NCBI RefSeq assembly: GCF_000003815.2
Contig: NC_049982.1
Coordinates: 20,894,705-20,958,704 of the forward strand
Direction of reading: 5' to 3'
DNA length: 64,000 nucleotides
Source of the DNA: Branchiostoma floridae
Lineage: Eukaryota; Chordata; Leptocardii; Amphioxiformes; Branchiostomatidae
Below the pieces are notes generated by a model, which saw only the letters and a list, made by a program, of their open reading frames with translations, ran no database searches and was not told the DNA's origin. Shown here piece by piece: positions 29,901 to 32,900 of this stretch. The position numbers and the translations under genes are program-made. Numbering within the stretch: position 1 is the first letter of the stretch; each line of letters opens with the position of its first letter.

Positions 29901-32900
29901 TACCGAATAAACTGTCCTAGCTGCCCGACCCCGGATGGCCCCCAGGGTAGTTCAAACTCTAAAATACCTTTAAACTGCAGAATCAAACTTCAATCTAAGC
30001 ATGCGAATCCTTGTCTGAAATCTGCCCATTGCTGCCCCCCTCCCCCGTACATTAATGTTGTTTGTTCCATCTGTTCTGTGTTCTGTGTAGTTTCTGGAAC
30101 CGCGTGCTTGTGCAGCGGCCGGGCAGAGCGGCCTTATGGCGTTGTACGATTCCATGTTCTCTCAGTACGGCATTACCTGTGCCCAGGTGAGGTTACCTCA
30201 AACCATGTGATTGTTCGTTCATGACGTAACCAAACGTTTTTCGTTCCGTAGAACGAGGACGAGATGGTTAAGGAAGCGTGCGCCGCGGCGGGACAGGGGG
30301 GCCTCATGGCCCTGTATGATTTACTGTTTGGCTTACGTGGGATTAACACGGCGCAGGTGAGAGTTGATGGGTTGATCAGGGTAACTTAAGCTGGGAGGTT
30401 TGTAACTTAATCTTTCTCAGCTATGTAACTCTTCACCGTCGGAAATTCTACTTGACACATTGTAGTTTTACAGGTACGAGGCTTGCAAGCGAGTCTTTTA
30501 TACCCGACATTATTTACAGTAATCAGTATCGCTCCTTTTTTCAATGCTTCTGCATGCTGATTTTTACTTCTCTTTTTCTCTAATTTGATACATTGATATT
30601 TGTGATTCAGTATGTTTTCCATACTTAATATGATGGATATAAGTTTTTTAGGTTTTTGCTTCTTGATAGAAAATTAAAGTAGAATGATTTTTTACTATGA
30701 TTTATGGAGTTCAGAAATTTAAGCTTTTTTGTCCTTGTGCATGCATTTGCTTTTAAAGTAGTTGTTTGCATGTTAGGTTATTCAATTAAACCTACCAAAA
30801 GTGATGGTTATGTTCCTCTCCTACACCTTTTGTACCAACACTGTTTCTGTTACCCACTAAGGTGCTGGTGACCAAGCCGGATTTCTACAACGATGACAAC
30901 CGGCGCAATTTGCAGAGCACGATCAGCGAGCTGCTGCGGATGAATATCGTGCCTATCCTGAACGCCAACGATGCCGTTGCCCCTCCTCCCGAACCTGACA
31001 AAGACTTACTTGGGGTATGGCATATCTTTCCTGTAGTATACATCCTTTAGAATACCAGGATGAAGGGCAAGATGGTTTGTGGTTTGAGACTGTTCCAATT
31101 TTGTGAGGGGGAGTTAAGAAAACTCTTGATGGATAAACTACTCTCTCTGATGGATATCATTATGAAAACTGAAATCATGGGGAGAAGACCTCCAGTTTAA
31201 AGATGGAATTATCTTTACTTTATGTGGTTGTTTTTGATTTCCTCTTTGCGCTATAGGATCAGAAAGGTTACCAAGCAAGACTTTTAAGGGCCTCTTTCAA
31301 GATTTTAAAGTCCATATCAAGACCTTAAAACTGTCATTTGTTGGTACTTTAAGGACCATTATATTATCTTAAGGAAACCCCACTTTTAGTGGTTTAAGAT
31401 GGACTTGTAGTTTGTTAATTGTGTTTACCTAATCTAGAGTAATCTAGTTACCACTGCCATACTTAACTTTCCTTGAGCCAGACTTGCCATGCCTATAACA
31501 TAAGTAATGCTGCCATAGCTGCCCTCCCCCCATCCATCCATTGACACAGCGTCATCTCACTAATCAGCCTCAGTGATGTTTTGACGATCGATTCCTACGG
31601 GACCAGCACTTTTCCCAGAGTGCATTGCCCCGATGAAGACAGTTTTGACTGAGGGCAGAAACATTTCACCCATTGTTTTGCCTCAGTTCCCTCGAATAGG
31701 ATTAATAATGGCTGCTCTTAATGATTTATTTGCATGATTATTTGCTTATTGTTAGTCTTCATAAATTTTCCATTTTGTTATAATCTTTAGCTTCAGGTTA
31801 CTTATGTATTAATGTGACGTTACATTGTGATACCTACCCCACATAATGTAGAGCCAGTGAAACTGCCATATATTTTGGGTTCAATTTGATTTGCTGTGAA
31901 GTTGCTGTTTCTGCTCATGTCACCTCTTCAGTTTGTTCAATAGTGGTTTTCCTTGCTGCTTTTTTGGATTGTCAAGTCTAGTTCATCTGTGCTTAACTCA
32001 TTTTGGCTAGTGTCCTCAAGCCATATTTCCCCTCCCTGCATGTGTAGTATTGATAATGATTTAGAAAATCATTCAGTTTTCCACAATTTCATATACATGT
32101 AAATATTACCTATCATGTGACCTAAAAGGCAGCGCTAACAATTCTGTTTGTCATATGTGATGTTGTTTTGGATGAAAAGACTGAGATTTAATATGGTAAT
32201 AGTCTAGTCAGCTTCTGTTCAGTGTTTTATAGGAATCTATAGGGTCTAAAGCTGCAGTTTTTCTTCCCTGTGTGTCCAGGTGATCAGTGTGAAGGATAAT
32301 GACTCCCTGGCGGCGCGGCTAGCTGCGGAGGTCCAAGCCGACCTGCTCTGTCTGTTGTCCGATGTAGACGGGATCTACACCGCTCCGCCCGGCGAGGATT
32401 CCTCCAAGCTGATCGACACGTACTATCCCGGGATTCAGAGCACCATCAAGTTTGGGCAGAAGTCCAGGGTCGGCATGGGAGGTATGGAGTCCAAGGTAGG
32501 TCTGGGGTACCCGGGTACACATTCTGTGCTTGGTCAAATGTATGTATGGTATATGTTTTGTGATTAGTCTAATAGCTGTACATGGAATAGATGTTATGAT
32601 AGGCCAAAAATACATAAGAAACTTGCTTTATGATTGATCAAAAAGGACGATGTGATTTAGATCCACTGTACAACAAATGCATGTATGATTCATCAGTCAT
32701 TAGTGTCTAATGCCAATGTAATGCATGATTGCATGGTCGAAGGTTAGTAAACAGTATGATACCTGTTGGTAGTAAACATAGCACAGTGCTTAACTTTATT
32801 CCAACGTTAAAGGTGTATTCAGATCAAATTTTCAATGACCACTATTACCTTCTTCAGCATCAATAGTGACCAATCACTACAGAACGTAAACTGGTGAGAG

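What the first reader, a model, noticed from the sequence alone, without database searches (positions are those of the whole stretch)
30091..30356. Candidate mutually exclusive exons in the kinase domain of P5C synthase
Two adjacent exons, both phase 0-0 and both with good splice sites, encode alternative versions of the same kinase helix. They share [15 protein letters not shown]...GI..AQ. Across ACAAAGQ-x-GLMALYD most shared codons with synonymous alternatives differ (for example GCT/GCG, TGT/TGC, CTT/CTC, TTG/CTG, TAC/TAT) while the amino acids are kept. That indicates an old duplication held by purifying selection on the protein. The intron between them is 65 nt (30187-30251), short enough that splicing 3a to 3b should be sterically difficult, a classic cause of mutual exclusion. 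The two isoforms would differ at the helix entry (FLEPR against NEDEMVKE) and in the helix. This may change substrate handling, oligomerisation or feedback inhibition, which is inference. I know of no description of such a pair in this enzyme.
Basis: partly seen in the sequence, partly recalled or inferred. Interest (0 to 1): 0.92.

Follow-up and report, generated by a model that had tools for sequence, protein, structure and literature searches.

The report
Swappable exon pair in lancelet P5CS
A lancelet gene for the enzyme that starts proline synthesis carries two old, well-preserved versions of one exon side by side, so the animal can probably make two forms of the enzyme by using one or the other, although no RNA evidence was available to prove it.

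Summary
The window holds a complete P5CS (ALDH18A1) gene, 26944-36853, + strand, the only copy found in this genome. Two adjacent homologous phase 0-0 exons lie in its glutamate-kinase domain: 3a (30091-30186, 32 aa, canonical) and 3b (30252-30356, 35 aa), 65 nt apart. Full-length isoforms with either exon pass the P5CS model (1028.1 and 1005.5 bits; cut-off 796.75). Over 27 shared codons pS is 0.91 and pN 0.20; 0 of 3,913 neutral simulations were as protein-conserved. All 8 replacements fall in columns that vary among 84 relatives; 0 of 10 low-entropy columns changed. So 3b was long held as protein. Mutual exclusion is inferred: the eight best branch-point candidates in the 65-nt intron lie 9-48 nt from its 5' splice site, under the ~50-nt limit proposed from vertebrate work, and 84 other lancelet introns, measured or estimated, are all about 100 nt or longer. 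The exchanged segment starts in the flexible loop after the filament 'hook' known from Drosophila P5CS and ends 8 residues before a plant feedback-inhibition residue. RNA, other lancelets and enzymology could not be tested. I file it as a new example of a known kind: tandem-duplicated, probably mutually exclusive exons.

The parts
26944..36853 (+). P5CS (ALDH18A1) gene, ATG to stop; exons 26944-27315, 29009-29164, 3a or 3b, 30862-31014, 32280-32495, 32951-33166, 33414-33734, 34039-34176, 34800-34995, 35161-35282, 35963-36149, 36555-36853
   Evidence: Exon joins give one open frame of 823 aa (3a) or 826 aa (3b); both pass TIGR01092; the protein search of the genome finds 12 exon matches, all at this gene
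30091..30186 (+). exon 3a, canonical version of the kinase-domain segment, phase 0-0, 32 aa
   Evidence: aligns with Drosophila LEPRAAAAVGQSGLMSLYDAMFAQYGVKIAQ
30187..30251 (+). 65-nt intron between 3a and 3b; the 8 best branch-point candidates lie 9-48 nt from its 5' splice site
   Evidence: branch-point weights recalled
30252..30356 (+). exon 3b, diverged second version of the same segment, phase 0-0, 35 aa
29009..29164 (+). exon 2; holds the lancelet counterpart of the filament hook (AMSQSMR, residues 155-161)
   Evidence: alignments; numbering; hook from PMC8963878
30862..31014 (+). exon 4, common acceptor exon; holds F216, counterpart of plant F128/F129
   Evidence: PMC11208152 passage

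Best explanation
Exons 3a and 3b are an old tandem duplication inside a lancelet P5CS gene and are used as alternatives, one per mRNA. Shown from sequence: both exons are intact, interchangeable in frame, flanked by good splice sites and constrained as protein. Inferred: splicing 3a to 3b is hindered because the 65-nt intron leaves too little room between its 5' splice site and its branch point, so exon 2 joins either 3a or 3b and that exon joins exon 4 (I put the steric part alone at about 0.5). Inferred, weaker: the swap changes the end of the flexible loop after the filament hook (FLEPR to NEDEMVKE, three residues longer and more acidic) and the second half of the next helix and turn ([11 protein letters not shown] to [11 protein letters not shown]) while the conserved core stays, giving isoforms of similar chemistry that differ in filament assembly or end-product inhibition.
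For: Intact frame and splice sites in both exons. Full-length isoforms score 1028.1 (3a) and 1005.5 (3b) against a P5CS cut-off of 796.75; in the kinase part the exon adds 73.6 (3a) or 52.3 (3b) bits over skipping it. Core pS 0.905, pN 0.203, bootstrap pN/pS 0.09-0.41. 0 of 3,913 neutral runs had pN <= 0.21. The 8 changed columns are the variable ones (permutation p 0.0013) and 0 of 10 columns under 1 bit changed. Only 0.32% of 20,000 random 8-replacement mutants fit the family profile as well as 3b. 65-nt intron: 11 other introns of the gene are 165 nt or longer, 52 estimated myosin introns about 111 nt or longer, 21 estimated SNF2 introns about 103 nt or longer.
Against: No RNA evidence at all. 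No second species, so 3b could be specific to this genome or recently released from constraint. 3b fits the family less well than 3a (52.2 against 67.8) and its S>L, Q>L and Y>R are atypical. Double inclusion would stay in frame (858 aa) and scores higher than either single form in the kinase part because it gives two stretches (407.6 against 392.8 and 371.5), so neither frame nor profile forbids it. The intron control is hand-picked and estimated; uncorrected distances between neighbouring matches go down to 54 nt. The functional reading rests on Drosophila and plant structures only.
Confidence: 0.75

Rival explanations
1. 3b is a cassette exon: some mRNAs hold 3a and 3b together, which inserts 35 residues and duplicates the helix.
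For: All combinations are in frame; splice sites on both sides of the 65-nt intron are good; some animals splice introns of about 60 nt routinely (recalled).
Against: A second copy of a core helix in a compact kinase fold would probably not fold (inference). None of 84 other lancelet introns measured or estimated is as short.
Confidence: 0.1
2. 3b is an unused relic or splicing noise: used in the past, now drifting.
For: 3b fits the family less well than 3a and carries atypical residues; no expression data here.
Against: Saturated silent change with low protein change, open frame, intact splice sites, GC3 0.71 like the gene's 0.70. Drift over that divergence never matched in 3,913 runs.
Confidence: 0.1
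3. A rival on mechanism only, compatible with alternative use: the choice is enforced by splicing regulators or RNA pairing, not by lack of space in the 65-nt intron.
For: Known pairs use regulators; the listing shows UNC-75 pairs in C. elegans (abstract start only).
Against: The only inverted repeat of 12 nt or more found in 29165-30861 lies inside a dispersed repeat in intron 2. Regulator sites were not searched for.
Confidence: 0.3

Closest known systems
Mutually exclusive exons 4a/4b of vertebrate OGDH (PMC7969005, passages seen)
   Same: Homologous neighbouring exons in a mitochondrial enzyme of glutamate-linked metabolism, short intervening intron, branch points within about 50 nt of the upstream 5' splice site.
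   Different: Branch points mapped and isoform effect (calcium sensitivity) shown there; here both are inferred. Different gene; not homologous.
Mammalian ALDH18A1 donor-shift isoforms (Hu et al. 1999, seen only as cited in PMC1779574, passage)
   Same: Same gene; alternative splicing; an isoform insensitive to ornithine inhibition.
   Different: A 6-nt shift at a GTAAATGT donor, not an exon swap. The lancelet exon 4 donor (GGG|GTATGGCAT) has no GT six bases on. That this is the same junction as in mammals is recalled.
Alpha-tropomyosin exon pair (Smith and Nadal-Ginard 1989; seen only in the reference list of PMC7969005)
   Same: Exclusion of double splicing by a branch point close to the upstream 5' splice site.
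   Different: Muscle structural gene; its details are recalled, not read.

Membership tests
Tandem-duplicated mutually exclusive exons | Adjacent exons homologous to each other | tested here: met
   Score 92 against a shuffle maximum of 43 in 2,000
Tandem-duplicated mutually exclusive exons | Same phase, each alone keeps the frame and the protein family | tested here: met
Tandem-duplicated mutually exclusive exons | Both copies kept as protein by selection | tested here: met
   pairwise only, so a recent loss in one copy is not excluded
Tandem-duplicated mutually exclusive exons | Exactly one of the two is included in mature mRNA | not testable with these tools
   No RNA data reachable
Tandem-duplicated mutually exclusive exons | A feature that prevents double inclusion | tested here: inconclusive
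   65-nt intron, 8 best branch candidates 9-48 nt from the 5' splice site, unusual among 84 other introns; frame does not forbid double inclusion
P5CS (TIGR01092) | Whole-protein score above the curated cut-off of 796.75 bits | tested here: met
   1028.1 with 3a, 1005.5 with 3b
P5CS (TIGR01092) | Enzyme activity of each isoform | not testable with these tools
   Needs expression and assay

The most novel reading that the evidence does not exclude
Lancelets evolved an exon switch at the joint between the filament hook and the kinase core of P5CS, so that splicing sets filament assembly or feedback sensitivity of proline synthesis. Mammals reach a similar end (ornithine sensitivity) by a different splice event in the same domain.
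Probability: 0.4. Interest if true: 0.65.

Novelty: new member of a known kind. Interest (0 to 1): 0.52.

Why it matters
P5CS controls entry into proline and ornithine synthesis, and its filaments are under active study. A natural pair of isoforms that differ only next to the hook would be a ready-made experiment on what that joint does. It would also be a case of two chordate lineages tuning the same kinase domain by unrelated splicing events.

Tried and rejected
Paralogue, retrocopy or second haplotype in the same genome, which could show which splice form was copied or how the pair varies: only the locus itself was found by kinase-domain model, DNA of 30080-30370, full protein and 3b peptide. 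These searches score only best candidates.

RNA pairing as a switch: one inverted repeat of 12 nt or more in 29165-30861, inside a dispersed repeat in intron 2. One fold of 30160-30280 had no control, so I draw nothing from it.

Structure prediction of the isoforms: not tried. The tool takes proteins that the DNA gives letter for letter, and I judged that a spliced product is not one.

Literature on this pair: 5 papers; 8; 17, of which 16 listed; 414 holding two of three terms, 20 listed; amphioxus with ALDH18A1, 0 papers. No listed title or abstract start reports it; I did not open most of them. Passages were seen in PMC8963878 (also its outline and section 6), PMC11208152, PMC1779574, PMC7969005, PMC9013439 and PMC10464499. 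In PMC9741552 none of six search terms occurs. PMC2866264 is not held. The last paper search, on lancelet short introns, gave nothing used.

Full report
What is there. The window lies in an animal genome assembly of 513,431,437 bases in 431 contigs. That size fits the Branchiostoma floridae reference as I recall it; no call names the species. A complete P5CS (ALDH18A1) gene runs from 26944 to 36853 on the + strand, with 12 coding exons per isoform and one duplicate. Only this copy was found by kinase-domain model, DNA and protein search of the genome.

The duplicate. Exon 3a (30091-30186) and exon 3b (30252-30356) are both phase 0-0 with good splice sites. 3a is canonical: Drosophila P5CS reads LEPRAAAAVGQSGLMSLYDAMFAQYGVKIAQ at the same place. 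All four combinations stay in frame: 3a 823 aa, 3b 826, both 858, neither 791 (counts without the stop). Full-length 3a and 3b proteins pass the P5CS cut-off (1028.1 and 1005.5 bits, cut-off 796.75). In the kinase part 3b adds 52.3 bits over skipping the exon and 3a adds 73.6; with both exons the score is 407.6, higher than either alone because two stretches are counted, so it says nothing for or against double inclusion.

Age and constraint. In the 27-codon core 19 residues are identical, and 12 of those 19 codons differ silently. pS is 0.905 and pN 0.203, bootstrap pN/pS 0.09-0.41; a second count that lets paths run through stops gives 0.879 and 0.211. Silent change is saturated, so the duplication is old; I give no date. 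Letting 3b drift neutrally from 3a until pS reached 0.85 worked in 3,913 of 4,000 runs; none had pN at or below 0.21 (minimum 0.27), and 1,174 were free of stops. Among 84 relatives (80 prokaryotic loci and 4 PDB sequences) the 8 replaced columns are the variable ones (mean entropy 2.75 against 1.29 bits, permutation p 0.0013), and 0 of 10 columns under 1 bit changed. Of 20,000 random mutants with 8 replacements 0.32% fit the family profile as well as 3b; with the same residues put at random positions, 0.48%. Against my reading: 3b fits less well than 3a (52.2 against 67.8), and S to L, Q to L and Y to R are atypical. A pairwise test cannot exclude a recent loss of constraint on 3b, and the profile is almost wholly prokaryotic.

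Why one or the other. The intron between the exons is 65 nt, and its eight best branch-point candidates lie 9-48 nt from its 5' splice site. PMC7969005 gives about 50 nt as a proposed steric limit and reports OGDH exons 4a/4b as a case (passages). To see whether lancelets splice such introns I took the gene's other 11 introns (minimum 165 nt), 52 introns estimated from consecutive myosin-head matches (minimum about 111 nt) and 21 from SNF2 matches (minimum about 103 nt). None of these 84 is as short as 65 nt. The rows were picked by hand, many myosin genes are close paralogues, and the lengths are corrected for profile overlap (before correction the smallest distance is 54 nt). So 65 nt is unusual here, not proven unspliceable.

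What the swap would change. In Drosophila P5CS residues 105-128 form the hook that joins tetramers in the filament; residues 128-140 (or 124-142) are disordered, and a hook mutant, R124A, lowers activity (PMC8963878, passages and section 6). The PDB sequence carries the paper's residues at the paper's numbers, and exon 3 corresponds to about Dm 140-170: from the end of that loop through the following helix to the next strand (the helix is inferred from the alignment and the fold). Eight residues after the exon, in common exon 4, lies F216, the counterpart of plant F128/F129, whose change to A in Vigna removes feedback inhibition; the authors place it near the tetramer centre and away from the catalytic pocket (PMC11208152, passage). 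The exchanged segment thus sits between an assembly element and a feedback element, while the residues invariant in six aligned sequences (A98, G101, Q102, L105, F113, Q122 of the kinase part) are kept in both versions. From this I infer that the isoforms differ in assembly or regulation more than in chemistry. This is not shown.

Comparison. Mammalian ALDH18A1 has a splice event in this domain, a 6-nt donor shift that gives an ornithine-insensitive form (PMC1779574, passage citing Hu et al. 1999). The lancelet donor at what I recall as the same junction has no GT six bases on, so it could not make that form in the same way. The lancelet pair is therefore a different event in the same enzyme, and it works like tandem-duplicated mutually exclusive exons. 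Membership waits on RNA. That is a statement about this library only.

Verdict. A real, old, protein-constrained exon duplication. Alternative use is likely and mutual exclusion plausible; both await RNA evidence.

Noticed in passing
window ~29688-29950 (query 29640-29970): Foldback repeat in intron 2, ending about 140 nt before the 3a acceptor, with inverted arms 29761-29790 and 29862-29891. About 40 places in the genome at 81-89% identity besides itself (40 of 569 first-look candidates scored). It may be a MITE.
   Followed up: partly
window 30252-30290 (start of 3b): 3b has K in a column where 49 of 84 relatives have K and 3a has P, so the 3b helix entry looks in part more like prokaryotic glutamate kinase than 3a does. 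The alignment there is loose.
   Followed up: no
window 57236-61984, minus strand: Open frame of 1,583 aa with no Pfam match at E <= 0.001; intronless gene or mobile element, not determined.
   Followed up: partly
window 47417-49591, minus strand: Single open frame of 725 aa with three copper/zinc superoxide dismutase stretches.
   Followed up: no
window 8863-10509, + strand: Reverse-transcriptase pieces in two open frames separated by a stop, a LINE-like remnant.
   Followed up: no
window 20148-20573, minus strand: Piece with a weak match to the CH-like domain of sperm proteins (PF06294, 29.3 bits, cut-off 27).
   Followed up: no
G000 C9:6373761-6605930 and C5:18087765-18184506: Clusters of many myosin-head gene copies in this genome (rows).
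   Followed up: no
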